Below are positions 156-41,633 of a stretch of 41,633 nucleotides of DNA, one piece after another. This DNA is from a virus. Position 1 is the first letter of the stretch; each line of letters begins with the position of its first letter. The stretch is from the IMG/VR virus record IMGVR_UViG_3300009285_003210, positions 1-41,633 of that record, one strand, 5' to 3'. A program made the translations under genes and the position numbers. The notes under the pieces are model-generated. The model did not search any database, was not told the origin of the DNA, and saw nothing but the letters and a program-made list of their open reading frames with translations.

Positions 156-373
156 TGCGCCCGCATACGCAAATCCACGATAGAATACGATATGTTAGGG
201 TTGCCCAGCGGAGCGGTCTGTTGCAGCAACGTGGCGCGAAGGCAGAGCTTGCGCGTATCCTTGGGGTAAGCACGCAGTATATATCATATCTGCTGCGAAG
301 GATTGCGGAGGAAGGAGCCTCCGAAAATGGCGTGACAGGCGCTGACGGATTGAGAGGCGAACATGGTAGCTGA
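155..373 (+). CDS. Small helix-turn-helix protein before the portal gene
   Basis: A 72-residue basic protein. Residues about 30-50 (AELARILGVSTQYISYLLRRI) fit a helix-turn-helix: a short helix, the turn GVS, and a recognition helix. Its ATG overlaps the preceding stop (TGATG) and its last codons overlap the portal start by 11 bases, so it belongs to the packaging operon. Position and HTH together would suit a small terminase-like DNA-recognition subunit or a small regulator. It is shorter than typical small terminases, and the tail after residue 52 (rich in Gly and Glu) has no recognisable domain. The DNA-binding fold is reasonably supported; the specific role is inference. Confidence 0.55.
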   Translation: MRPHTQIHDRIRYVRVAQRSGLLQQRGAKAELARILGVSTQYISYLLRRIAEEGASENGVTGADGLRGEHGS

Positions 374-1991
374 AATAAAGCAAGAAGAGCCGACTTCAAT
401 CAACAAGCGGAAGCCGCGCCACATGCAGCCGGAGGTTGGCACATCCGGCCTTCGTCGCTTTGGCGGGTACGTCAATGATGACTTTGATCCACAGTTAAAC
501 GGGTTCAAGGCGGCGGCGGCGTACGACGAAATGCGGCGTAATGACCCGGACGTTGCGGCGGTCCTGAGCGCCATCGAATATCTCATCCATAGCGTCGACT
601 GGACGGTTGTACCCGGCGGCAATACGCAGGCAGATATCGACGCCGCTAACTTCCTGCGCGAATGCATGGAAGATATGGACATGAGCTGGCACGATTTGAT
701 CAGTGATGTCTGTTCCATGTTTCCTTTTGGATGGGCATATTTTGAGATCATCTGGAAGCAGCGTAATGGTCTCTCGCCGCATGCCGATGAGATGGAAAGT
801 CAGTATGACGATGGGCGTATTGGCTGGGGTAAGGTTGCTCTACGCGGCCAAGAGAGTCTTGATCGCTGGGAATTCGCGGACAATGGCGACATCAAAGGCA
901 TGTACCAGCGCGTACTCTGGTCGCCGGTTACGCCACAGCAATCTATCCCCAAACTGATCCCTATCGAAAAGTGTGCGCTATTCCGTGTCAAGCGTGAGAA
1001 GAACAACCCGGAAGGTTGGAGTATCCTGCGCCCGGCGTATCGCCCGTACTTCATCAAGAAGAATATAGAAGAGATTGAAGTGCAGGGCGCTGAGAAGGAT
1101 ATGGTCGGCACACTCGTGATCCGGATGCCTGCAAATGGCACGTCTGATGATCGCGAAGTGGCGCTTACGATGCTGGAAGATTATCACAGCGGCGATCAGA
1201 CTGGGCTTCTCCTGCCACGTACTGTCAATGACCCCACCCTCCTTGAACTGGACTGGTCGGCGGAGCTCATGAAGAGCCCCGGCAGCAAGATGGTCGATAC
1301 AGACAAGATCATCAACAGGTGCAGTGTTATGATCACGCGTACCAGCCTTGCGCAGTTCCTGACGCTTGGTCAGAACCGCGCCGGAGGTAGCCGTGCGCTG
1401 GGCGAGAGTATGATGGATTTATTCCAAGTGAGTGTGAACGGACACTTGGATAACATCGAAGGAACGATTAACCGTTCCATGGTGCGCCCGTTGTTCAAAC
1501 TGAACGCCTTCTCCGGCATGACCAAATTGCCGCAACTACAGCACGCCAACACGGGCGAAATGACCATGAAGGACTTCTTCGACAGCATCACCAAGCTACA
1601 CGACACGGGCTTCCCGCTGAACGACCCGGACGCGATCAATGTCGTGCGCAAGAAGCTCGGATTGCCGCAGCTTGACCAGGATTACCTCCAGCAGCGCCAA
1701 GAGATTGAAGAGCAGGCCGCGCTCGCCATCAATACCCCTGATTGGGAAGACAGCAATGAATTCCCGAAGGAGCGATACCCGGTTAAGATTGATGAACGTG
1801 TTCCGGCTCGGGGCACCAAATCTGTGAAGCAGGAAGCCCCATTGCAGCCGAAGGGTGATCCGGCCAACCCACTGAACAAGCTCAAGGTCGATCGTAAGCC
1901 GCCGCCGCCTGCACAACAGTCTATCCACGCTCCGGCTCGTAAGACGGCACGCGAATGGAGGGAATGGCTAGAACAGAATTCGGAAGAGTAG
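363..1991 (+). CDS. Phage portal protein (Mu gp29 / DUF935-like)
   Basis: A 542-residue protein of the usual portal length. It should form the dodecameric ring at the capsid vertex through which DNA is packaged and to which the tail connects. Sequence signs: an N-terminal segment with NDPDVAAVLSAIEYLIHSVDW (residues about 58-78), followed by WHDLISDVCSMFPFGWAYFE and the IIWK segment. These match the conserved 'DP.i...l...k..i..W' and 'ml.yGf...EivW' blocks of Mu gp29-like portals. The middle carries the FRVKREKNNPEGWSILRPAY block, and the C-terminus is Pro-, Lys- and Arg-rich. The start overlaps the preceding HTH gene. It is the first confident structural gene of the window. Confidence 0.85.
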   Translation: MVAEIKQEEPTSINKRKPRHMQPEVGTSGLRRFGGYVNDDFDPQLNGFKAAAAYDEMRRNDPDVAAVLSAIEYLIHSVDWTVVPGGNTQADIDAANFLRECMEDMDMSWHDLISDVCSMFPFGWAYFEIIWKQRNGLSPHADEMESQYDDGRIGWGKVALRGQESLDRWEFADNGDIKGMYQRVLWSPVTPQQSIPKLIPIEKCALFRVKREKNNPEGWSILRPAYRPYFIKKNIEEIEVQGAEKDMVGTLVIRMPANGTSDDREVALTMLEDYHSGDQTGLLLPRTVNDPTLLELDWSAELMKSPGSKMVDTDKIINRCSVMITRTSLAQFLTLGQNRAGGSRALGESMMDLFQVSVNGHLDNIEGTINRSMVRPLFKLNAFSGMTKLPQLQHANTGEMTMKDFFDSITKLHDTGFPLNDPDAINVVRKKLGLPQLDQDYLQQRQEIEEQAALAINTPDWEDSNEFPKERYPVKIDERVPARGTKSVKQEAPLQPKGDPANPLNKLKVDRKPPPPAQQSIHAPARKTAREWREWLEQNSEE

Positions 1992-14742: not shown

Positions 14743-15177
14743 AGGAAGCGAGTAGTGGTGGTCAGCGACCATCTAAAGCAATACGCAGATCTGAGACTTG
14801 AGCGCGGGCAGATCTTTGAGCTCCAGGACAAATTGAATGACTTGAAGCTCATGGGCTGGAACTATATCCGCGAACTTGAGCCGAAGGAAGAGACGTATAG
14901 CTGCAAGTGTGGGCGCGAGTTCATTGGCGGCGTGACCGATCCGTGGGCACGCGAACATACGCGCAAGTGGCAGGGCGATTGTTCGCCGAAGATTGATGTT
15001 GATGGGGTAAATCTGAAGGGGAAGCCGCCAATCTTGAAGGGCGGTGGCAACCCGGATGCTGAAGGTCCAGGTTGGGATTTGGGCGTGGGTGGCAAGGGAG
15101 GGCCGCCGGTAGACCCCTATGCAGGAGAGCGGGTTGGGGCGAAGGAACGCCCGCGCCGCGTTTCACTCGGGGGATAG
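14737..15177 (+). CDS. Hypothetical protein with a putative zinc-binding centre
   Basis: 146 residues, unrecognised. The N-terminal half (MSRKRVVVVSDHLKQYADLR...) looks helical. A possible metal site follows: YSCKCGREF (C-x-C), then EHTRKWQGDC (His and Cys), residues about 53-85. The C-terminal third is Gly/Pro-rich and probably disordered. It directly follows the major capsid gene, suggesting a head-associated or connector role. A CsrA-consensus hairpin overlaps its start codon, so its translation may be controlled. Confidence 0.55.
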   Translation: MSRKRVVVVSDHLKQYADLRLERGQIFELQDKLNDLKLMGWNYIRELEPKEETYSCKCGREFIGGVTDPWAREHTRKWQGDCSPKIDVDGVNLKGKPPILKGGGNPDAEGPGWDLGVGGKGGPPVDPYAGERVGAKERPRRVSLGG

Positions 15178-15188
15178 GAGCTTAGATC

Positions 15189-15632
15189 ATGGCAGGTACA
15201 GTGGAAAAGTGGCGTAAGCGTGGCGTATTCGCCACAAGTGTAACGATCAAGAATAAGGGTTCTTCGGCCGGTGTCAAATCGCTTCAAGGATTTATCAATA
15301 ACTCTAATGGCGGGACGTTCACCTCTGGCGTAGCGGCGGGTACGCTGGCGATGACACTCAACGGTACTTCCGTTGCCGGTACACAGGCACTTCTTGATCT
15401 GACAGCACACCGCCTGCGTATCCCTTCGGCCGGACGTGCTGTTGGGGGCGATACTGTGGGCTTCGGCACGAATTGTGGAGCCGGTAATGGCAGTGCTGGA
15501 GATATCGTTACCGGGTTCACTGCCGGAAGCGGGGAGATCGCAGTGAATATCAATGGAACTGTATTCGTACTTGAATGGCCGACGGGTGGCGGCGCCGTTG
15601 TGTGTGTTCCATATGCGGCAGGAGTAGCATAA
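15189..15632 (+). CDS. Hypothetical head- or tail-associated protein
   Basis: 147 residues, Gly/Ala/Thr-rich and mostly predicted beta (VNSLQ... not evident; instead AAGTLAMTLNGTSVAGTQALL and GSGEIAVNINGTVFVLEWPT strands). A good ribosome-binding site (ATAGGAG) precedes the ATG. No named family is recognised. It lies between the capsid and tail modules with a similar-sized partner downstream, and may be a virion decoration or head-completion protein. Confidence 0.5.
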   Translation: MAGTVEKWRKRGVFATSVTIKNKGSSAGVKSLQGFINNSNGGTFTSGVAAGTLAMTLNGTSVAGTQALLDLTAHRLRIPSAGRAVGGDTVGFGTNCGAGNGSAGDIVTGFTAGSGEIAVNINGTVFVLEWPTGGGAVVCVPYAAGVA

Positions 15633-16061
15633 ATGGCAGCCGTAAGGCGACAGACAGCGTATCTCGTTCCCACCGTCATTGGCGGCGGATCAGCGCAGGT
15701 CTGCGCCCAGCCAGGAACGGCAACCGCAGGCTCTCATACGGCAGGGGGCGTTGCTCCGTATTTTCTTCTCCAGAAAGGGTTCATCGGGTGGCAGCATCAT
15801 GCCGGTTCGGCGAATGGCTCCGCGCTATCGCTCGCCCTTCTTGATGGAAGCGCCGTGGCGGCTGGCACGATTGCAATTATCATTTGCCAACCAAATTCTA
15901 TGACACCGTTTGACTTCACGGTCGGTGCGGATCGCTATGAAGGCGTTGCCGTGAAGGAGCCGGGTGGCCTATGGATTCACCCGACTACAGAACTAGCTAA
16001 TCATGGAACAGTTAGCGGCACAGTAAGTATGACAGTAAAGATAAAAGATGTATTGCAATAA
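15633..16061 (+). CDS. Hypothetical virion-associated protein
   Basis: 142 residues, starting directly after the stop of the preceding gene with GGCAGGAG upstream. It contains VAPYFLLQKGFIGWQHHAG and a beta-rich end (HGTVSGTVSMTVKIKDVLQ). Like its upstream neighbour it is a small beta-rich protein in the head-tail interval. No family recognised; a small decoration protein or head-tail joining protein are both possible. Confidence 0.5.
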   Translation: MAAVRRQTAYLVPTVIGGGSAQVCAQPGTATAGSHTAGGVAPYFLLQKGFIGWQHHAGSANGSALSLALLDGSAVAAGTIAIIICQPNSMTPFDFTVGADRYEGVAVKEPGGLWIHPTTELANHGTVSGTVSMTVKIKDVLQ

Positions 16062-16070
16062 TCAGGGAGG
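16059..16070 (+). promoter_or_regulatory. Shared leader motif TAATCAGGGAGG
   Basis: The leader of the gene at 16076 contains TAATCAGGGAGG, closely similar to the one at 20843-20854 and sharing TAATCAGGGA with the leader of the CsrA-like gene at 33120-33129. AGGGAGG acts as Shine-Dalgarno; the repeated upstream bases suggest a common regulatory element or common ancestry. Confidence 0.45.
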
Positions 16071-16075
16071 ATTAT

Positions 16076-16927
16076 ATGCGTGTCGGGGTAATGAAGGACT
16101 TCTCCATAGAGGAGCGTGCGGGTGGCGCTCAACGCGCCATGCAGCTCTTCGAACGCGGCGTTCCGAGTGGGATCGAGATTGTGCGGCTCCCCGCTGGTTC
16201 CGAACACCTTGATCCCACTTGCGACGCTTACTTCACGGGGCTCGTGAAGACGTTCCCAGATCATCTTCTACAAGAGCTTGTAGACAGCGGCAAGCCGCAT
16301 GTGCGTTACCAGTTTGATCTTTGGGATGATTCGCCGAATGCCGTGACGTGGGCGCGCAGATTGTGTGAACAAGCAAATGTCACGATGTTCCCGTCTCCTA
16401 TGTATATGCAGATGTTCCTGAACGGGTGGCATCTTGACCCGCGTGATACGTATATCGCGCTGGCCCCGCCGATGGATCTTGCGGAGCTAAAGCCGCACCG
16501 CGAAAAGTGGGACGAAAAGGGCCGCAACGGTATCTGTTACTTTGGCGAAGTCCACCCCTTGAAGGGCGTTGACATCGCGATTCGTTGGGCCGCGAACGAA
16601 GGCCAAGTCCTGGATATTTACGGCCCGCTGAGCTATAACTTTCCGGCGCATTCATTCGCCCGATATAATGGCTGTCCGGATCAGTACACGCTCTACGACG
16701 CCGTGGCCAGCCACGAATGGCTGATCCACATGCCGCGCAAGGCCGATGGCTTCAGCTATTCAATTCTGGAGGCGCAGCTCTTGGGCCTGCGCGTGTACGC
16801 GACGGGGAAGCTTGGGATCGAGAGCTGGCTAGAAGTCTGCAAGGAAGGCGGCTTCGATCAGCTCGTGGAAAAGTGCGCACTTGCGCCTAGCGAATTCTGG
16901 CGGGTATTCACAGGGAGAGTGAATTAG
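16076..16927 (+). CDS. Glycosyltransferase, GT4-like (GT-B fold)
   Basis: 283 residues. The N-terminus (MRVGVMKDFSIEERAGGAQRAM) corresponds to the glycine-rich first loop of GT-B enzymes. The C-terminal donor domain shows ICYFGEVHPLKGVDIAIRWA (compare 'fvGrl...KG.d.li.A') and MPRKADGFSYSILEAQLLGLRV, matching the family 4 block 'ps..EgfglvilEAma.G.PV' with its E-x7-E-like acidic pair partly replaced by D...E. It should transfer a sugar from an activated donor; the acceptor is unknown. It starts a second glycosylation cassette inserted between head and tail genes. Confidence 0.7.
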   Translation: MRVGVMKDFSIEERAGGAQRAMQLFERGVPSGIEIVRLPAGSEHLDPTCDAYFTGLVKTFPDHLLQELVDSGKPHVRYQFDLWDDSPNAVTWARRLCEQANVTMFPSPMYMQMFLNGWHLDPRDTYIALAPPMDLAELKPHREKWDEKGRNGICYFGEVHPLKGVDIAIRWAANEGQVLDIYGPLSYNFPAHSFARYNGCPDQYTLYDAVASHEWLIHMPRKADGFSYSILEAQLLGLRVYATGKLGIESWLEVCKEGGFDQLVEKCALAPSEFWRVFTGRVN

Positions 16928-17206
16928 ATGGCCACTATTCGACCATTCGTACAAGGGGTAGGAGCTTCTCAGGAAATTGGAACTGAAATTGCTAAGATGT
17001 TCGGCCTAGATCCAAGGCGCGTTTCGGCAGTGCATATTAATTTGACGGCCGGAGAAGTTGCCAAAATCACAGTGGAATGTAATGCTCAGCTTGAAGAGAT
17101 TACTTCTATCGTCGAAAAAATGCGGCGCTATCGCTGGGTAGAGCATAACGGCACAATGGATTTCCGAGAAAATGGCCTTATCATGGAGGAGAAGGCAAAT
17201 GCCTAG
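16928..17206 (+). CDS. Hypothetical 92-residue protein
   Basis: Starts directly after the preceding stop and ends overlapping the next start by eight bases. It reads FGLDPRRVSAVHINLTAGEVAKITVEC, a strand pair with turn, then a helix (EEITSIVEKMRRYRW). Small proteins with this 'DP.rv..v.i....ge...v.v' wording occur in phage structural regions, but no function is known to me. It sits between two glycosyltransferases and may be an unrelated structural gene around which the cassette was inserted. Confidence 0.5.
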   Translation: MATIRPFVQGVGASQEIGTEIAKMFGLDPRRVSAVHINLTAGEVAKITVECNAQLEEITSIVEKMRRYRWVEHNGTMDFRENGLIMEEKANA

Positions 17207-18596
17207 TTTTATTCCGCGAGAGAAGACCGGGCTCAATATTCTTTATCACGCGAACGCCCCGTGGGCGAAAACCGGATATGGCGTTCAGTCCAATAGTCTG
17301 TTGCCCCGCCTCGCCAAGCTTCCCGGAATTAACGAAATCGCACTCCTCGCGTACTACGGCATCGCGGGTGGAGTGAGCGAACAGGAAATTGGCCTCGACG
17401 TGCCGGTTGAACACATCAAAGTCAAGTGTTACCCGGCGCGAAGCGACCCGTGGGGCAATGACGTCATTGCCGATCACACGATGGCCTTCAATGCTGATAT
17501 GGTCATCACGCTGTTTGATCTGTGGCCGCTGGCCGCCGAATTCGGCTGGACTGGGGCGCGCTGGACTCCTTGGTTTCCGATCGACCACGAGCCTGTTCCG
17601 CCCGGCGTGCTTGAACGGAGCATGTCGACATACGAGAATCTTGTTTACAGCAAGAGCGCCGTAGAAGAACTCGCTCGGAACAACGTCAAGCACACGTATA
17701 TCCCGCACGGGGTTGAGACGACACTCTATAGGCCGCTTGATGATGAAGCGCGGAAAGATGCGAAGGAATGGCTGGGCTTTCCGCGCGATTGCTTCCTGAT
17801 CGGAACGGTAGGCGCGAACAAGGGCTACCCACCGCGCAAGGGCTGGAACGAGATGTACACGGCCATTGCGGAATTCATGCGCACTGCGCCGGAAGCCGAG
17901 AATGTCTACTTCTATCAGCACAGCCTGCTGACGGGCGAACACGGCGGTCCGGATTTGCAGCAGATGGCGACAGACTTTGGGCTTTCTGATAAGATCCGGT
18001 TCGCGAACCCGTATCGGCTCCAAAGCGACGGTATGACAAACGAAGAGATGAACCGCGTATATAATGCAATGGACGTGTTCATCCTGCTGAGCCGGGGTGA
18101 AGGGTTTGGCCTGCCGATTCTTGAGGCGCAATCCTGTGGTACGCCGGTGATCGTTACCGATTGGACGGCATGCCGTGAATTGGGCGAAGTGGGGTACAAA
18201 ATCCCGATATTGCACCGTGAATGGACGCCGCAACGCAGTTTTTGGGGCATTGCCGACCCCGTGAAGGCCGCACAGGCGCTCCACGACGTCCACCACGCTT
18301 GGCTGGCCAATAAGCAGGGCTGGGGCACCACCTATAAGAACCTGCGAGCCGCTGCGAGGCAATTTGCACTGCCGTATGACTGGCAAACGCTTGTTGATAC
18401 GTACTGGGCTCCCTTCATCCAGCGCATGTGGGATGAAACGCGCCCGAGCATCTGGGGGCCGATGCAGAAGGTCTGGGAGAACAAAGACTTCGGCATTCCA
18501 GATGTAGAGGAAGCACCAGAGCGTCAGGTGATTGAAGTTGATCAATCTTCTTCTGTCAATGGGGCAAGCCCGGTAGAGGAGCCAGTAAAGGTTTAG
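17199..18596 (+). CDS. Glycosyltransferase family 4 protein
   Basis: 465 residues from the ATG at 17199, chosen because GGAGGAG lies just upstream; an ATG nine codons earlier lacks a proper site. GT-B fold: NILYHANAPWAKTGYGVQS in the acceptor domain; in the donor domain FLIGTVGANKGYPPRKGW, the FILLSRGEGFGLPILEAQSC block (E-x7-E with both acids present) and GTPVIVTDWTACRELGEVG. These are classic GT4 motifs. The acceptor may be a virion protein or a modified DNA base. It is the strongest of the three glycosyltransferase candidates. A 454-codon frame runs antisense to it and is judged a shadow. Confidence 0.85.
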   Translation: MPSFIPREKTGLNILYHANAPWAKTGYGVQSNSLLPRLAKLPGINEIALLAYYGIAGGVSEQEIGLDVPVEHIKVKCYPARSDPWGNDVIADHTMAFNADMVITLFDLWPLAAEFGWTGARWTPWFPIDHEPVPPGVLERSMSTYENLVYSKSAVEELARNNVKHTYIPHGVETTLYRPLDDEARKDAKEWLGFPRDCFLIGTVGANKGYPPRKGWNEMYTAIAEFMRTAPEAENVYFYQHSLLTGEHGGPDLQQMATDFGLSDKIRFANPYRLQSDGMTNEEMNRVYNAMDVFILLSRGEGFGLPILEAQSCGTPVIVTDWTACRELGEVGYKIPILHREWTPQRSFWGIADPVKAAQALHDVHHAWLANKQGWGTTYKNLRAAARQFALPYDWQTLVDTYWAPFIQRMWDETRPSIWGPMQKVWENKDFGIPDVEEAPERQVIEVDQSSSVNGASPVEEPVKV

Positions 18597-19628: not shown

Positions 19629-20369
19629 TTGGCTAAGTTTCACGGAAAGCATGTTCGCGTGTACGTTGATGGATACGATATCAGCGGCTATACGAACAGC
19701 CTTGAAGTCGAGCAGGGCGCTGACGTTGTTGACGTTGCGGCATTCTCAAGCGCCAGCAAAGAATATGTTGTCGGTCTGTTTGACAGTATGGTCAATCACG
19801 GTGGGTTCTTTGATGACACCGCTAACGAAGGCGGCCATGCGGTTTTGAGCGCGCGGCTTGGCAGTGCTACGAATTTCATGGCTCTTATCGGTACTTCGCC
19901 CGGCGGGCATGGGTTCGCTGGAAGTGCCGAACTTGAGGCGGTGTATAGCGTTGAGGCGAGCATTGCGGGCGCGATTACGCACAAGTCTAAGCTAACGAAT
20001 AGCGGCACGCAGGGTATCGACAATACGATTACGATCGTAGGTAGAGGGACGCTGGCCGCCGCAGGAACTTCTACCGCCGTTGCGACTACACCGTCTTCCG
20101 TAGCCGGAGGCAGGGCATATATCCAGAACTTTGGTTCATATGGACTTGCATCTCCAGGATCGGCAGATGGGCTTGGAACAGTGTTCCTTATCGGAGCAGC
20201 CGATGCGGCCTTTACGTCGGGCACGGCGGTTATTGCTTCGTTCGGCTCACAAGGCACGGCCCCAAGCGCATCCGGCTTGGCCTTTACAGGTACGGCGCAG
20301 TTCATGAAGATTCTCCAAGGAGGCGGACTGGGACGGCCTCAGGTTGCAGTAGCGGTAGATCTGAACTAG
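19629..20369 (+). CDS. Tail tube protein A (with extra C-terminal domain)
   Basis: 246 residues from a TTG start behind AAAGGAGGT. Residues 1-130 form a tail-tube-like domain: AKFHGKHVRVYVDGYDISGY, VVDVAAFSSASKEYVVGLFDS, HGGFFDDTANEGGHAVLSARL and a closing strand. The same blocks occur in the next gene, so they are tandem paralogues. The last about 110 residues (TAAAGTSTAVATTPSSVAGGRAYI...) are a Thr/Ser/Ala-rich addition absent from the partner, perhaps an Ig-like or surface domain. It should polymerise into, or decorate, the non-contractile tail tube. Confidence 0.7.
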   Translation: MAKFHGKHVRVYVDGYDISGYTNSLEVEQGADVVDVAAFSSASKEYVVGLFDSMVNHGGFFDDTANEGGHAVLSARLGSATNFMALIGTSPGGHGFAGSAELEAVYSVEASIAGAITHKSKLTNSGTQGIDNTITIVGRGTLAAAGTSTAVATTPSSVAGGRAYIQNFGSYGLASPGSADGLGTVFLIGAADAAFTSGTAVIASFGSQGTAPSASGLAFTGTAQFMKILQGGGLGRPQVAVAVDLN

Positions 20370-20399: not shown

Positions 20400-20831
20400 A
20401 TTTCGAAGTGGCACGGAAAGAATGTGACAATCATTGTTGCTGATAGCGCGGGAGCCCACCGCAATATCAGCGTCGGGGTCAACAGCGTTGATCTTCCGAG
20501 CGACCAGGACGTGGTGGATGTGTCCGGGTTCGGCGATGCGAAGAAGAACTATGTGACCGGGCTTGCGGACAGCAAGGTTGCGGTCAAGGGACACTTTGAC
20601 GACACGGCAAGCACGGGCAGCCATGTCGTTCTAAGCGGCCTGATCGGCGGCACAACAGGATACCGCTTTGTGGCCATGCCCAAGGGCAGCGTCAGCGGCT
20701 ATCCGGCGTTCTCCGGTTCGTTCCTGCTGAGCAAGTACAACCTGAGCGCAGCCATCAACGGGGCTATCTCATATGACGCCGAATTCGTTCCGTTCGGAAC
20801 GCAGGGCGGGACGTGGGGAACAGTAGCGTAA
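20400..20831 (+). CDS. Tail tube protein B, apparently from an AUU start
   Basis: 143 residues if started at ATT 20400, behind the ribosome-binding site GGGAGGTG (20388-20395). Alignment with the preceding paralogue sets the start: (I/M)SKWHGKNV here equals MAKFHGKHV there. Between the in-frame TAA at 20373 and the GTG at 20424 there is no NTG codon, so starting at GTG would lose the conserved SKWHGKN. Other shared blocks: VVDVSGFGDAKKNYVTGLADS, GHFDDTASTGSHVVLSGL. It should build the tail tube. No extra C-terminal domain. Confidence 0.7.
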   Translation: MSKWHGKNVTIIVADSAGAHRNISVGVNSVDLPSDQDVVDVSGFGDAKKNYVTGLADSKVAVKGHFDDTASTGSHVVLSGLIGGTTGYRFVAMPKGSVSGYPAFSGSFLLSKYNLSAAINGAISYDAEFVPFGTQGGTWGTVA

Positions 20832-20842
20832 GAAGCGATTCA

Positions 20843-20854
20843 TAATCAGGGAGG
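20843..20854 (+). promoter_or_regulatory. Shared leader motif TAATCAGGGAGG
   Basis: Second copy of the leader motif seen at 16059-16070, here directly before the ATGCG start of the tail assembly chaperone gene. Both copies end in a near-identical Shine-Dalgarno and start (AGGGAGGA, then ATGCG). Confidence 0.45.
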
Positions 20855-20858
20855 AATA

Positions 20859-21215
20859 ATGCGTAAGCTAGTTTGGGATGACGACGTTGAGGAAGTGGAT
20901 CTGGGCGATGGCGATTTTATCTCGATAGGGACTTCCCTGTCGATCCGAGATATGACGGCGGTGGGCGCTGGGGAAAACCAAGTTGAAATCAGCTTGGCTC
21001 TTCTCCAGCGCCTTATCCGTAGCTGGCGTGGGCCGAGCTTTGAACGCGATGGAGAGCCCGTTCCCGTTACGGCAGAAAACGTCGGTCGTCTGGATATGGC
21101 AACGGCGTCGCTGCTTTCTGAACGCTTGGCATCCCGCGTGACTCGTGATCGGATGGATGAGGAGACAAAAAAAGAGTCTATCGAGACCTCATTACCCACC
21201 TCAACGATCCCTTAA
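20859..21215 (+). CDS. Tail assembly chaperone, short form (G-like)
   Basis: 118 residues between tail tube and tape measure genes, the constant place of lambda G-like chaperones. The sequence is acidic with strands then helices (FISIGTSLSIRDMTAVGAGE; ISLALLQRLIRSW; ATASLLSERLASRV). It should bind the tape measure protein during tail assembly. An A7 run near the 3' end lets a fraction of ribosomes make the longer GT product. Normal termination is TAA at 21213-21215. Confidence 0.7.
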   Translation: MRKLVWDDDVEEVDLGDGDFISIGTSLSIRDMTAVGAGENQVEISLALLQRLIRSWRGPSFERDGEPVPVTAENVGRLDMATASLLSERLASRVTRDRMDEETKKESIETSLPTSTIP

Positions 21216-30185: not shown

Positions 30186-30532
30186 GCAGATTCCAGAGCC
30201 AGCATCAGGCCATCGCCCATCTGTTCGCGCAGATAGAGAACATCAAGGCGCGGCTGTCTAGGATCTCAACGCCCGGCGGACAGCTTCGTATTGAAAGCAC
30301 GACGATTCAGGGCGGCGTGTGGCCGCATGATCATGCTGATGCGGAAGGGGCCGGGCAGATAGAATATGAACCTGCCATTGCCAGCAATTGGAATGGAAAC
30401 CAGGACCCGGGGAATCTCTGGCAGGCACTTGATCAGCTTGCCAGTAGAATTAAGGCGATTGAAGCGGCTCTTATTGGCATACCCCCAATTGTGTATCCTG
30501 CAAATACGATGCTCTTCAATGGAATGGAGTAA
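30182..30532 (+). CDS. Small trimeric-coiled-coil-type tail protein
   Basis: 116 residues. An N-terminal heptad-like helix (HLFAQIENIKARLSRI), a strand-rich middle with WPHDHADAEG, and LWQALDQLASRIKAIEAALIG, closely resembling the 'vq.aldeL..ri..le' trimerisation helix common in tail fibres. It follows the hub and probably forms a tail-tip or fibre adaptor. The four-base overlap upstream indicates coupling. Confidence 0.55.
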   Translation: MSRFQSQHQAIAHLFAQIENIKARLSRISTPGGQLRIESTTIQGGVWPHDHADAEGAGQIEYEPAIASNWNGNQDPGNLWQALDQLASRIKAIEAALIGIPPIVYPANTMLFNGME

Positions 30533-31708: not shown

Positions 31709-31950
31709 GTCCGTGCCCGCGATGCGGCCGTGCCAACGCCCTCGTCCGCGAGACGGATCGCTGGGGGTCGTATCTCAACTGCTGGACGTGCGGCTTCAAC
31801 AAGGAGGAGATCGACGGCGAGCCGTTTGCGTGGTCGCCGCACAATCCGCACAGGGAGTATCTTGATCCTGTCGTGACGGCGGGCGAGATAGAGCGGGCGA
31901 AGCGGGAGTATCAGCGGGCGTACAGGGCGCGGAAGCGTGCTACCGCTTGA
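31705..31950 (+). CDS. Zinc-ribbon protein in the lysis module
   Basis: 81 residues from ATG 31705, overlapping the holin stop by four bases (ATGA). Two cysteine pairs (CPRC at residues 4-7 and CWTC at 26-29) form a zinc ribbon. The C-terminal half is a basic helix (EIERAKREYQRAYRARKR). This could bind nucleic acid. Its last 14 bases overlap the amidase start. It belongs to a second GC-rich patch. Confidence 0.6.
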   Translation: MSPCPRCGRANALVRETDRWGSYLNCWTCGFNKEEIDGEPFAWSPHNPHREYLDPVVTAGEIERAKREYQRAYRARKRATA

Positions 31951-32686
31951 CCGGCAAGCGGCGCTCGAAAGGATTATCGGCATGACGTTCGCGGCAGCGT
32001 ACCCCGGCGCCATCGTCGTACCGGCCGACCCGCGCAACTACTACGGGCCAGACTCCGGCCGGCGCAAGTGCTGGCCGCTGGCCATCGTCTACCACACGCC
32101 CCAGGAGCCCGCTGACAACTACGAATCCACGCCGGCCTATTTCTCGACCTTCCGCCCGTACGATCCGGCGACCGGCCTCGGCGGCCCCGCATCGACCCGC
32201 TACTACCTCGACAACGACGGCGACCTGTATCAGATGGTGCCGGAGGACTGGGGCGCCATCGCCAACGGGCTCGACGGCAAGCCGAAGCCCTATTGGGCCT
32301 TGCCGGACTCACTCAACCTTCAGACGGACAACATCGAGATCGAGGGCTACGCCCATTCGTTGAAGGACACGATGACGAATGCCCAGTGGAGGACGCTCGT
32401 GGACTGGTCGACGTGGTCGATGATCCGGTATTCGATCTCCCGCGAGGAGGGCCGGATGATGGGGCACTATGAGCTGAGCGTGCAGCGGTCAGATCCGGGA
32501 CCGTGGCTGATGGGCAGCGGAATCAAGCAGGAGGTGTTGGCGAGAGTGAATCAATACGAGCGTGACGTGAAGATGCTTCAGGCCGAGAACGAGGTGCGGA
32601 AGGGCGAGATCCAGGCGCTGTTCAAGGCGCTGTTCGTGCCGCCACTGGGGCTGCGGCCGAGAGTCGAAACGCTGGAGCAGAAATGA
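31937..32686 (+). CDS. Endolysin: N-acetylmuramoyl-L-alanine amidase (Amidase_2/PGRP type)
   Basis: 249 residues from a GTG start. Amidase_2 signs: VYHTPQ with zinc ligand H53; STRYYLDNDGDLYQMV; NIEIEGYA; second ligand H177 in MGHYEL; and D186 in RSDPGPW at the third-ligand place. It should cut the amide bond between N-acetylmuramic acid and L-alanine in peptidoglycan, releasing phage at the end of infection. After about residue 190 a coiled-coil-like tail follows (VNQYERDVKMLQAENEVRKG). No signal peptide, so it needs the nearby holin. GC-rich relative to surroundings. Confidence 0.8.
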   Translation: MLPLDRQAALERIIGMTFAAAYPGAIVVPADPRNYYGPDSGRRKCWPLAIVYHTPQEPADNYESTPAYFSTFRPYDPATGLGGPASTRYYLDNDGDLYQMVPEDWGAIANGLDGKPKPYWALPDSLNLQTDNIEIEGYAHSLKDTMTNAQWRTLVDWSTWSMIRYSISREEGRMMGHYELSVQRSDPGPWLMGSGIKQEVLARVNQYERDVKMLQAENEVRKGEIQALFKALFVPPLGLRPRVETLEQK

Positions 32687-32710
32687 GCTATCCGGGATTT
32701 CCGGATAGCT
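32686..32710 (+). other. Perfect 10-bp inverted repeat after the endolysin gene
   Basis: AGCTATCCGG, a 5-base loop GATTT, and CCGGATAGCT form a perfect 10-bp stem starting on the last base of the endolysin gene. No T-run follows, so a classical intrinsic terminator is unlikely; an attenuator, an mRNA stabiliser or a processing site are possible. A 23-codon frame (32683-32754, overlapping the endolysin stop) runs through it. Confidence 0.6.
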
Positions 32711-32754
32711 GCGCGGCCGAGCTGGTGCGCGCCGGGAAGGCGCTGGAGGGATAG

Positions 32755-33042
32755 ATGGCGAAGTTTCGAAAGAAGCCCGTTGTGATCGAAGCAATCACGT
32801 TCAACGAGTTGGTTGAATATGGCATCACATCTGGCGCAGTCACGCACAAGGGGATGCCGTGGTCGTTTGACTACGCGGGGCACCCCATCACGCACGAAAA
32901 CGATGACTGTTACCTGATCCCGACGCTGGAAGGGACGATGAAGCTGCTGCGCGGCGACATGTTGATCACGGGCGTGGCAGGCGAAATCTACCCATGCAGG
33001 CCGGACATCTTCGAGGCAACGTACGAGTCGGTCGCCGAATGA
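32755..33042 (+). CDS. Conserved phage hypothetical protein (PGDYG-like wording)
   Basis: 95 residues with well-spaced ribosome-binding site (TGGAGG). It starts MAKFRKKPVVIEAITF and has YLIPTLEGTMKLLRGDMLIT and GEIYPCRPDIFEATYE. This is the pattern of a very widespread small phage and prophage protein ('...v.iPTleG.m.a..GDwii.GvkGE.YpckpdiF..tYe'). Its function is not established. High confidence that it is a real gene; none for a role. Confidence 0.75.
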   Translation: MAKFRKKPVVIEAITFNELVEYGITSGAVTHKGMPWSFDYAGHPITHENDDCYLIPTLEGTMKLLRGDMLITGVAGEIYPCRPDIFEATYESVAE

Positions 33043-33116
33043 ACCCGCTCGTGCTGTGGCACCTGTCGATGGCGGCGCGGGCGAAACGGCTGGCCAAAGA
33101 AGCGGCGGAGATGTGA
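33039..33116 (+). CDS. Possible 25-residue peptide
   Basis: ATG at 33039 overlaps the preceding stop (ATGA) and the frame reads MNPLVLWHLSMAARAKRLAK, ending with TGA 33114-33116. It would be a short amphipathic basic helix. Coupling by overlap is the only support. Confidence 0.3.
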   Translation: MNPLVLWHLSMAARAKRLAKEAAEM

Positions 33117-33119
33117 ACC

Positions 33120-33131
33120 TAATCAGGGATG
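33120..33131 (+). promoter_or_regulatory. CsrA-like core site in the leader of the CsrA-like gene
   Basis: TAATCAGGGATG contains CAGGGATG, the core of the known CsrA consensus (RUACARGGAUGU), with a second GGA in GATTGGAGGGAG, the Shine-Dalgarno of the gene at 33148. Two GGA sites spaced about ten bases apart upstream of a csrA gene are the usual layout for autoregulation. Confidence 0.4.
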
Positions 33132-33147
33132 ATTGGAGGGAGCCTAG

Positions 33148-33327
33148 ATGCTGGTAATAAATCGCAAGACGGAAGAATCGATTATCATCGATGTGCAGGG
33201 AACGCCCATCTACGTGTATATTCTTCGTACGTCGCGCGGGCTTGCTAGCGTTGGGATCGAAGCGCCGAAGGAGTTTCACGTCTTACGAAGTGAACTTCCT
33301 AGGCACTTGCGGAGCGGAAGCTGCTAG
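33148..33327 (+). CDS. csrA: CsrA-like carbon storage / translational regulator
   Basis: 59 residues: MLVINRKTEESIIIDV... then GIEAPKEFHVLRSELPRH. It matches CsrA/RsmA in length and in its two best-conserved regions: the N-terminal 'MLvLtRkvgEsi.I' and the C-terminal 'vGIeAPkev.VhReEi'. The RNA-contact residues L2/I4/R6 and the arginine equal to E. coli R44 (here R47) are kept. CsrA dimers bind GGA motifs near ribosome-binding sites and change translation. The leader itself has GGA sites. It is the last plus-strand gene and its end overlaps the end of the convergent TSCPD gene by 45 bases. GGAGG lies at proper distance before the ATG. Confidence 0.85.
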   Translation: MLVINRKTEESIIIDVQGTPIYVYILRTSRGLASVGIEAPKEFHVLRSELPRHLRSGSC

Positions 33328-33675
33328 TTCTTTCTCAAGCACCTGTGCTACGAGATCAAGAAGGCTGCTGCACTTGGCGATTCCAAGACCCTTTACCGGG
33401 CCTGCGGGAGGGAAGGACTGCCCCTTAAACTTGTCAATAATAACTTGGACGGGGACGCCATATTGGAGCGCGATGCTTGTCTGGGTTGCCCAGCCGTCCA
33501 GCATACCCTGAAGCGTCGTTCCTTGCTTGCCGATCCCTACGAATATTTCCGCGATTTCGTGTCCGCCTTCGTAGAAATTCACGCGCACGTATAGATCAAT
33601 ATCGCCCTGTTCTGAGTAGACGACAAGATGATGTATGCGCCCGCCACGGGTATCGGGGAGCTTATTCCTTACCAT
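33283..33675 (-). CDS. Stand-alone TSCPD-domain protein (class II ribonucleotide reductase-related)
   Basis: 130 residues. It follows the C-terminal region of NrdJ-type ribonucleotide reductases: KLPDTR at the start, YVRVNFYEGGHEIAEIFVGI, GKQGTTLQGMLDGWATQTS, IALQYGVPVQVIIDKFKGQ and PAGPVKGLGIAKCSSLLD. In NrdJ this region lies C-terminal to the catalytic barrel and is often followed by a redox Cys pair, which is missing here. No reductase catalytic domain is in the window. It might modulate the host or phage reductase or act in nucleotide binding. It is the last gene of the minus operon, overlapping the upstream GNAT gene by 14 bases. Confidence 0.75.
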   Translation of the reverse strand: MVRNKLPDTRGGRIHHLVVYSEQGDIDLYVRVNFYEGGHEIAEIFVGIGKQGTTLQGMLDGWATQTSIALQYGVPVQVIIDKFKGQSFPPAGPVKGLGIAKCSSLLDLVAQVLEKELAASAPQVPRKFTS

Positions 33676-40034: not shown

Positions 40035-40297
40035 TTCATGTCTTCAATCCACCTATGTAGTACGCGAAGCTCTTGTTGTAAATACGCTTCCGGCGCTGTT
40101 TCGGCACGAAACCATAATCCTTCATCTTTAGCCTGTTCGTCGGCTAAGCCCCACAGTGGGCGGAGTTTCTCTTCAATAAAATCCTTCTCGTACTGATCAA
40201 GAATCTTTAACGTAGCTATCGAATCCTGCGGTAAGACTTTTGGTTTTAATGGGTCATACCAGCCAAATGCTCTCAGGAGATCTTCTCGTGTCATCAT
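40031..40297 (-). CDS. Hypothetical 88-residue protein
   Basis: Starts MMTREDLLRAFGWYDPLKPK, then helices (LKILDQYEKDFIEEKLRPLW; YLQQELRVLHRWIEDMK). It is acidic-helical and overlaps both neighbours by four bases: the thymidylate synthase-like gene upstream and the hypermodification-type gene downstream. It may assist that pathway, but no family is recognised. Confidence 0.55.
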   Translation of the reverse strand: MMTREDLLRAFGWYDPLKPKVLPQDSIATLKILDQYEKDFIEEKLRPLWGLADEQAKDEGLWFRAETAPEAYLQQELRVLHRWIEDMK

Positions 40298-41633
40298 GGT
40301 TTTTCATCTATCCAAATCTGTGCCGCCTTGAGCCAGTCAGAATAACTATCGACATGGCGGCAGTCATCCCAGATTGTTTCTAGCCGCCCAAGCCGATACC
40401 CGCGCAAGAAGTCATTCGCGAACATTAGGAACGGGATTGGCCCTTCGTAGTCGTCGCCGCTTTCCAGAGCCGCGTTACATGCTTCTACTAAAGTATCAAG
40501 CGGAATGGCCTCTGTAAACGCCAGCCTATGCACTGGCATTTCTGGCAGCGGCTCAAAGCCGTGCGCCAGCATGTTCTTCGTAATATCCCAGTTTGGTCCC
40601 ATGCCTTCGCCGCCCGTATAGACATGCAGACTGTTTGAAAGGTGTGTCTGTGTCCCCATCTCTACACCAAGCCGCGCAGCCAGCCAATCTAGCAAGATGC
40701 CAAACGTAGGGATATTGACGGCGTAGAGCCCCCAGTGCAGGTCGTTAGACCTATTGATGACGGTCATATGCAGCTTGCCATCGCGAAGCTTGAACATGAT
40801 CATGTCATTGCAGTTATGTACTAAGACCCCGGAGCCAACAAAGAAATTGTGGTTATCTTCTACAATTAGATCGTATACCGGCTCCGCGACAGTCAATGTC
40901 TTTATACTGACAACCTTATGATTATTTTCAACGGCAGATACATAATTTGACCAACTCCCCCATCGCACTTGAATAGTGCTGGGGCTGAATGTGCCACGGT
41001 ACTTCTCCCAGAAGTTCCTATATGTGATCTTTCCTTCTTCTTCAAGGAGGCGGCGGCCCATACGCACCAATTCAAATTCAGTTAGCTTTTTACTCGAATG
41101 ATATGAAGAAGGGATAGAGAATTCATGCCCTTGGTTAGTAGAGCGATGGTACTTAGCGTGTTTACCATGCTCAATCAGAACTAAATTATCTTTGTGATTG
41201 TCCATGCCATTGTGATTATCATGATGAACATCATGACCTGCCGGAAGCGGCCCGTTTAGGAATTCATAGTATTCACGGTGAACTGCCCGGCGATTTTTCC
41301 CTGCCCAATTCTTTGTAATGTTTTTGATGAATGCTTCGCGCCCTTTGTAACTAAATAGTCGGATAGGAATTAGGCTATTGCCCTCGTTTAGTTCATCGGC
41401 CCGCACCCAAGAATATGTTGTGGTAGAAGCGTGCTTCGCTTCATGCCCAAGTCGTTGGCGATTCTTGATAAGAACCTTGTGATCGGGAGTCAGCTTGATC
41501 GTAGAGCCATCATCGAGTGTAAGTAGAATAAGTTGCTTGCAGCCAGATTCTTTGCCAACGGCCCATTTGATTTCAATTTCGTCTGTATCTTCGTTAAGAG
41601 TGTAGACGGGGTATGTTCTTCCAACAAGCTTGC
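40294..41633 (-). CDS. Thymidylate synthase-like protein interrupted by an intein (5' end outside window)
   Basis: The frame is open to the right window edge. After the intein, the C-terminal extein (40294-40812) is thymidylate synthase-like: CNDMIMFKLRDGKLHMTVI begins with the catalytic Cys; RSNDLHWGLYAVN keeps the RS.D...G....N block, the Asn that favours uracil over cytosine substrates; SLHVY keeps the His and Tyr of D.H.Y, with Ser in place of the Asp. So it may make dTMP or, as in hypermodifying phages, 5-hydroxymethyl-dUMP. After about 40660 the rest differs from typical enzymes (FANDFLRGYRLGRLETIWDD). The N-extein is not visible. Confidence 0.75.
   Translation of the reverse strand, partial: KLVGRTYPVYTLNEDTDEIEIKWAVGKESGCKQLILLTLDDGSTIKLTPDHKVLIKNRQRLGHEAKHASTTTYSWVRADELNEGNSLIPIRLFSYKGREAFIKNITKNWAGKNRRAVHREYYEFLNGPLPAGHDVHHDNHNGMDNHKDNLVLIEHGKHAKYHRSTNQGHEFSIPSSYHSSKKLTEFELVRMGRRLLEEEGKITYRNFWEKYRGTFSPSTIQVRWGSWSNYVSAVENNHKVVSIKTLTVAEPVYDLIVEDNHNFFVGSGVLVHNCNDMIMFKLRDGKLHMTVINRSNDLHWGLYAVNIPTFGILLDWLAARLGVEMGTQTHLSNSLHVYTGGEGMGPNWDITKNMLAHGFEPLPEMPVHRLAFTEAIPLDTLVEACNAALESGDDYEGPIPFLMFANDFLRGYRLGRLETIWDDCRHVDSYSDWLKAAQIWIDEKP
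40813..41633 (-). other. HNH-containing intein, N-terminus outside window
   Basis: Block B is seen near 41500 (LTPDHKVLI, T-x-x-H form). The middle holds an HNH endonuclease domain (HREYYEFLNGPLPAGHDVHH, then DNHNGMDNHKDNLVLIEHG). The end is a classical intein C-terminus: VYDLIVEDNHNFFVGSG followed by VLVHN, with the next residue Cys. Splicing would join the exteins at that Cys, which is also the catalytic residue of the thymidylate synthase-like host protein. Block A with the first Cys lies beyond the edge. Confidence 0.85.

What the first reader, a model, noticed from the sequence alone, without database searches (positions are those of the whole stretch)
33148..33327. A phage-encoded CsrA homologue
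A 59-codon gene at the end of the late arm reads as a complete CsrA/RsmA protein with the conserved N-terminal and GIEAPKE regions and the RNA-binding arginines kept. Phages with their own CsrA could retune host carbon metabolism and motility or time their own late translation. The gene is small and easily missed by automatic annotation.
Basis: partly seen in the sequence, partly recalled or inferred. Interest (0 to 1): 0.85.

Follow-up and report, generated by a model that had tools for sequence, protein, structure and literature searches.

The report
Phage CsrA with self-targeting mRNA hairpins
This virus of bacteria carries its own small copy of CsrA, a bacterial protein that switches mRNAs off, and its own late mRNAs, including the one that makes this protein, carry the hairpins such proteins bind; phage CsrA genes are already known, but this offers concrete targets to test.

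Summary
Window 33148-33327 (+) encodes a 59-aa CsrA-family protein (PF02599, E 2.3e-12, 47 bits over a cut-off of 27). A 64%-identical copy sits at the same late/early junction in a second metagenomic phage, under purifying selection. A more distant kin phage carries csrA among its tail genes.

Phage-encoded CsrA is already known: 30 of 2517 phages (PMC7366521), 85 records in the collection searched here, and one case where knockdown shrinks plaques (PMC11879866). So this is a new, divergent member of a known kind. It lies in the late arm; the known phage copies inspected lie in early or regulatory regions.

New here: the published high-affinity CsrA/RsmE site, an ANGGAX hexaloop on a stem, occurs 8 times on this phage's late strand. 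That is 4.8% of ANGGA motifs, against 0.8% for other loops and 0.9% in 78 portal-related loci. Six of the eight lie within 70 nt upstream of late genes: portal (two), 15189, 16076, 30536 and csrA itself. I propose that the protein represses its own and other late mRNAs.

Sister phages carry an unusual 103-aa CsrA-like protein after the portal, perhaps a single-chain pseudo-dimer.

The parts
33148..33327 (+). csrA-like gene, 59 aa, last gene of the rightward late arm
   Evidence: PF02599 E 2.3e-12; purifying selection against L002
33119..33136 (+). leader hairpin CUAAUC-AGGGAU-GAUUGG with an ANGGAX hexaloop; contains UCAGGGAUGA, a full match to the pattern WCANGGANGW
   Evidence: hexaloop ANGGAX on a stem is the high-affinity RsmE consensus of PMC4005645
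33137..33141 (+). second ANGGA (AGGGA) overlapping the Shine-Dalgarno sequence of csrA; its GGA lies 12 nt after the first
   Evidence: sequence; bridging range 10-63 nt from PMC7652899
293..323 (+). two overlapping (mutually exclusive) ANGGAX hexaloop hairpins upstream of the portal gene at 363
15137..15152 (+). ANGGAX hexaloop hairpin GGGCG-AAGGAA-CGCCC upstream of gene 15189
   Evidence: also in the minimum-energy fold
16058..16075 (+). ANGGAX hexaloop hairpin AUAAUC-AGGGAG-GAUUAU holding the Shine-Dalgarno of gene 16076
30514..30529 (+). ANGGAX hexaloop hairpin CUUCA-AUGGAA-UGGAG upstream of gene 30536
   Evidence: not in the minimum-energy fold
363..1991 (+). portal protein
   Evidence: phrog_113 E 2.9e-81
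31937..32686 (+). endolysin, amidase (start may be internal)
   Evidence: PF01510 E 2.1e-10, phrog_1493
32755..33042 (+). small phage protein of unknown function upstream of csrA
   Evidence: phrog_419 E 2.9e-30
33283..33675 (-). TSCPD-domain protein, convergent with csrA and overlapping its 3' end; conserved beside csrA in L002
   Evidence: PF12637 E 5e-13

Best explanation
The gene encodes a divergent but complete CsrA/RsmA-family RNA-binding protein, placed to be made late in infection from the end of the structural and lysis transcript. Inferred: as a dimer it binds ANGGAX hairpins in the leaders of its own mRNA and of some other late phage mRNAs (portal, and the genes at 15189, 16076 and 30536), where it competes with ribosomes. 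It would thereby limit its own level by feedback and adjust late translation. Shown here: family membership, selection on the protein, its location, and the enrichment of published-type high-affinity sites in late leaders. Not shown: late expression, dimerisation, RNA binding, repression.
For: PF02599 match over the curated cut-off. dN/dS below 1 and the same junction in L002. The csrA leader has the only sense-strand site in the late arm that combines WCANGGANGW with a GGA hairpin of -5 kcal/mol or better; it is an ANGGAX hexaloop 12 nt before a second ANGGA at the Shine-Dalgarno. On the late strand, ANGGAX hexaloops with stems of 5 bp or more are 8 of 166 against 62 of 7509 for other loops; p 8e-5, 5e-4 without the csrA site, 0.003 after also merging the overlapping pair. 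GGA ranks first of the 64 triplets at that loop position. The excess is at the hexaloop register and not at most other loop sizes. Portal-related control loci: 10 of 1148, Fisher p 8e-4; leader 6 of 34 against elsewhere 2 of 132, p 0.001. Autorepression is known for E. coli csrA (PMC7652899).
Against: The closest csrA-bearing relative (L002, late strand of G001) has no such hairpins; its csrA has only a WCANGGANGW in codons 5-8, where coding for (S/T)RK can produce that motif. Three csrA-positive isolate phages show no enrichment. The numbers are small, the hexaloop test was prompted by first seeing the csrA leader, stems of 6 bp or more alone do not differ significantly from the control (p 0.12), and one of the hairpins is not in the minimum-energy fold of its leader. 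Some protein contacts differ from E. coli CsrA (H43 to L, Q29 to L, R31 to S).
Confidence: 0.48

Rival explanations
1. Host-directed regulator: the phage CsrA binds host mRNAs or host Csr small RNAs and shifts host metabolism, motility or defence gene expression; the GGA hairpins in phage leaders are incidental.
For: CsrA is a global regulator; Rsm/Csr controls CRISPR-Cas systems in Serratia (PMC8450108, abstract). [quoted passage not shown]
Against: A gene at the end of the late arm would act when little time is left for host reprogramming. The inspected known phage csrA genes lie in early or regulatory regions instead. The enrichment of sites in the phage's own late leaders is unexplained by this reading.
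Confidence: 0.27
2. The leader hairpins are read by the host's own CsrA, or act as decoys for it, and the phage protein is a late replacement or competitor for host CsrA.
For: The hairpins match the generic RsmE/CsrA site, which any CsrA would be expected to bind.
Against: The host is unknown and may lack csrA; no prophage or close cellular relative was found in 84,980 genomes.
Confidence: 0.17
3. A passenger gene with no present function.
For: It is present in L002 and, elsewhere in the genome, in G004, but absent from most portal relatives scanned.
Against: Purifying selection at 64% identity and retention at the same junction.
Confidence: 0.06

Closest known systems
Bacterial CsrA/RsmA/RsmE (PF02599)
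   Same: N-terminal MLV..R(K/R), the GI.APK motif, V45-R47-E49 equivalent to V42-R44-E46, small size; published ANGGAX hairpin sites in its own leader
   Different: 3-residue insert between the first two strands, L for H43, L for Q29, S for R31, fails the NCBIfam csrA equivalog cut-off, best PDB chain E only 0.004
Phage-encoded CsrA of isolates (Pseudomonas F116 type/RsmM, Vibrio VvAW1 and D279, Providencia PSTCR8lys, Xanthomonas PhiXhv-12)
   Same: CsrA-family gene in a tailed phage; some (VvAW1, PhiXhv-12) also have extra residues in the same loop
   Different: They lie in early, regulatory or recombination regions where the map shows it; they are closer to host CsrA; no ANGGAX hairpin enrichment in the three genomes tested; no tblastn match to the window protein in 50,697 phage records
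PTXU04 gp28 (CsrA homologue tested by CRISPRi-ART, PMC11879866)
   Same: phage CsrA homologue; knockdown reduces plaque size, so such genes can matter to the phage
   Different: sequence and targets were not compared here

Membership tests
CsrA family (PF02599) | Profile match over Pfam's gathering score across the whole domain | tested here: met
   47.1 bits against 27, profile positions 1-48 of 53
CsrA family (PF02599) | Critical residues: R44 of E. coli conserved, L4 or similar | tested here: met
   R47 aligns with R44; position 4 is I (V in L002); criticality of L4 and R44 from PMC7652899
CsrA family (PF02599) | Intertwined dimer with beta1 of one chain beside beta5 of the other | tested here: inconclusive
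   only a single chain could be predicted; strands at 2-7, 11-16, 19-28, 31-38 but pLDDT 67; no informative PDB match
CsrA family (PF02599) | Sequence-specific binding of GGA hairpin RNA | not testable with these tools
   candidate sites listed; needs a gel shift
CsrA orthologue as named by NCBI (TIGR00202) | Score over the curated equivalog cut-off | tested here: not met
   37.9 bits against 70.1
CsrA-controlled mRNA (the csrA leader) | A(N)GGA at or near the Shine-Dalgarno plus further site(s) within 10-60 nt | tested here: met
   AGGGA in the hexaloop and AGGGA at the Shine-Dalgarno, 12 nt apart. The stricter rule of at least three sites (PMC4066749) was not scored with its list of secondary sites

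The most novel reading that the evidence does not exclude
This phage lineage has made CsrA part of its own late gene control. The window phage has a late CsrA with a regulon of hairpins in its own late leaders, and sister phages carry beside the portal gene a 103-aa CsrA derivative that is a single-chain pseudo-dimer keeping only one of the two RNA-binding faces.
Probability: 0.22. Interest if true: 0.72.

Novelty: new member of a known kind. Interest (0 to 1): 0.42.

Why it matters
I know of no published direct RNA target for a phage CsrA. If this one acts on its own late leaders, it would be a small, portable translational regulator of virion-gene expression with autogenous feedback. It would also help explain why csrA recurs on phages without invoking host metabolism, and it gives a short list of RNAs for binding tests.

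Tried and rejected
Chance ORF: rejected by the Pfam score and the codon-position pattern. Reading on the other strand (ORF 32578-33279, -): stops in the other frames of both homologues. Conserved RNA element in the identical 23-nt run inside csrA (about 33189-33211): no stable fold beyond shuffles, dropped. Conserved leader hairpin between window and L002: not found. A CsrA hairpin as a general feature of phage csrA leaders: not seen in 10 other phage csrA loci, apart from a weak 4-bp one in VvAW1. GGA enrichment in F116, VvAW1 and PSTCR8lys: none. Looser motifs (ANGGA or WCANGGA in leaders) are confounded with the Shine-Dalgarno sequence, so I relied on hairpin geometry and non-GGA controls. 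Host identification by a prophage in named genomes: none. Structure of the 59-aa chain: uninformative. Rfam and tRNA scans of the window: nothing. Chain-wise fold searches with the sister phages' 103-aa model gave no CsrA match and no standout match; an intertwined dimer cannot be expected to match chain by chain.

Full report
What is there. The 59-codon frame at 33148-33327 (+) is complete and is the only CsrA match in the record. It passes the curated cut-off of Pfam CsrA (47.1 against 27 bits, E 2.3e-12) and matches PHROG 9500 'CsrA-like regulator', but it stays below NCBI's csrA equivalog cut-offs. It is therefore a divergent family member. Aligned with E. coli CsrA it keeps M1, L2, R6, E10, G36 (E. 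coli G33), A39-P40-K41, V45, R47 (R44) and E49, has I at position 4 and K at 7, and has three extra residues between the first two strands.

It is a real, selected gene. The nearest relative found (64% identity) is in IMGVR_UViG_3300020195_000150, at the same place: the last gene of the rightward late arm, convergent with and overlapping a TSCPD-domain gene that is also conserved (63% identity). Codon-position differences are 22/12/31, pS 0.65, pN 0.29, and other frames are interrupted. A kin phage with 53% portal identity (G004) carries a third copy of 61 aa between homologues of the window genes 18600 and 19152, that is among tail genes. Among 38 further portal relatives none passes the CsrA cut-off, though many are fragments.

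Phage CsrA is known. Sobrero and Valverde reported csrA alleles in 30 of 2517 phage genomes (PMC7366521). A tblastn with E. coli CsrA finds 85 phage-collection records, although a few of these (a Salmonella contig, an Acinetobacter contig with alaS) look like bacterial sequence deposited as phage. Knockdown of a CsrA homologue in phage PTXU04 reduces plaque size (PMC11879866). The window protein has no tblastn match in that collection and none in 84,980 genomes by this method. In the known phages whose maps I inspected, csrA lies among early, regulatory or recombination genes; here it is in the late arm.

Possible targets. The published high-affinity geometry is a hexaloop ANGGAX directly on a stem (PMC4005645); E. 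coli SELEX likewise favours six-nucleotide GGA loops, and one dimer can bridge sites 10-63 nt apart (PMC7652899). The csrA leader holds exactly this: CUAAUC-AGGGAU-GAUUGG at 33119-33136, followed by AGGGA at the Shine-Dalgarno, GGA to GGA 12 nt. Scanning the late strand (1-33350), 8 of 166 ANGGA motifs sit in such hexaloops with stems of 5 bp or more, against 62 of 7509 other loops; GGA ranks first of 64 triplets and the antisense strand has 0 of 71. The binomial p is 8e-5, 5e-4 without the csrA site, and 0.003 after also merging the overlapping portal pair. The excess is seen in the hexaloop register and not in 5- or 7-base loops; one 8-base register has 4. Control loci around 78 related portals give 10 of 1148, the same as background. 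Six of the eight lie within 70 nt upstream of a start: portal twice, 15189, 16076, 30536 and csrA; in leaders 6 of 34 GGA loops qualify against 6 of 642 non-GGA loops. Most are also in the local minimum-energy folds, except the one before 30536.

Limits. The hexaloop test was prompted by the csrA leader, the numbers are small, and a stem cut-off of 6 bp alone is not significant against the control (p 0.12). L002 lacks these hairpins, so the idea lacks conservation support. Three csrA-positive isolate phages show no enrichment. Host CsrA could read the same sites. The host is unknown. Late expression is inferred from gene position. Dimer structure and RNA binding are untested; the single-chain model is poor.

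Sister phages. Five of the next-closest portal relatives (41-46% portal identity: G005-G009) and one more record carry a 103-aa protein, just after the portal in the loci where this was checked. Its start (MYVLRRTVGT.ITI) and end (FGI.AP..I...R.E) align with the start and end of CsrA (hhalign P 7e-4 for the N-terminal part and 1.7e-6 for the C-terminal part), with about 45 extra residues between. Pfam gives 25.1 and 18.6 bits, under the cut-off of 27. AlphaFold with four sequences gives pLDDT 86 and nine strands, which fits two CsrA-like halves in one chain. If so, only the face made by the first strand of half one and the last strand of half two would remain. This is inference: no dimer template could be compared, and chain-wise searches neither support nor exclude it.

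Verdict. A genuine phage CsrA, a new divergent member of a known kind.

Noticed in passing
L115:2998-3309, L114:2998-3306, L112:2998-3306, L110:1260-1571 (also L111, L113): A 103-104 aa CsrA-like protein family, next to the portal gene in sister phages, with CsrA-like first and last strands and about 45 extra residues between; predicted nine-stranded (pLDDT 86). Possible single-chain CsrA pseudo-dimer; below Pfam's cut-off and no match in the phage collection.
   Followed up: partly
window 20846-20859 and L002/G001 homologue: UCANGGAGGA overlapping the Shine-Dalgarno of the gene two before the tape measure is the one WCANGGANGW seen in both window and L002 leaders (UCAGGGAGGA and UCAUGGAGGA); may be only a strong Shine-Dalgarno.
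   Followed up: no
window 40294-41406 (-): 370-aa frame matches HNH endonuclease families at residues 36-107 and thymidylate synthase families at 199-268, suggesting an HNH element joined to or inserted in a thymidylate synthase gene near the record's end.
   Followed up: no
window 16076-18596: A glycosyltransferase (17172-18596) and the neighbouring gene 16076 lie inside the structural module between head and tail genes, conserved in order in G001 and G004.
   Followed up: no
window 19629-20369 and 20424-20831: Two adjacent related major tail proteins (phrog_9522/10528), paralogues cross-matching in G001 and G004 too.
   Followed up: no
G001 (L014) and G003 (L015, L016): Two fragments from the same metagenome (3300020195) that match complementary parts of the window genome; perhaps one phage in two contigs.
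   Followed up: no
phage collection hit H2 (CAKLQH020000034.1): Record named Acinetobacter phage carries alaS, thrA, csrA and rnhB: apparently a bacterial chromosome contig labelled as phage.
   Followed up: no
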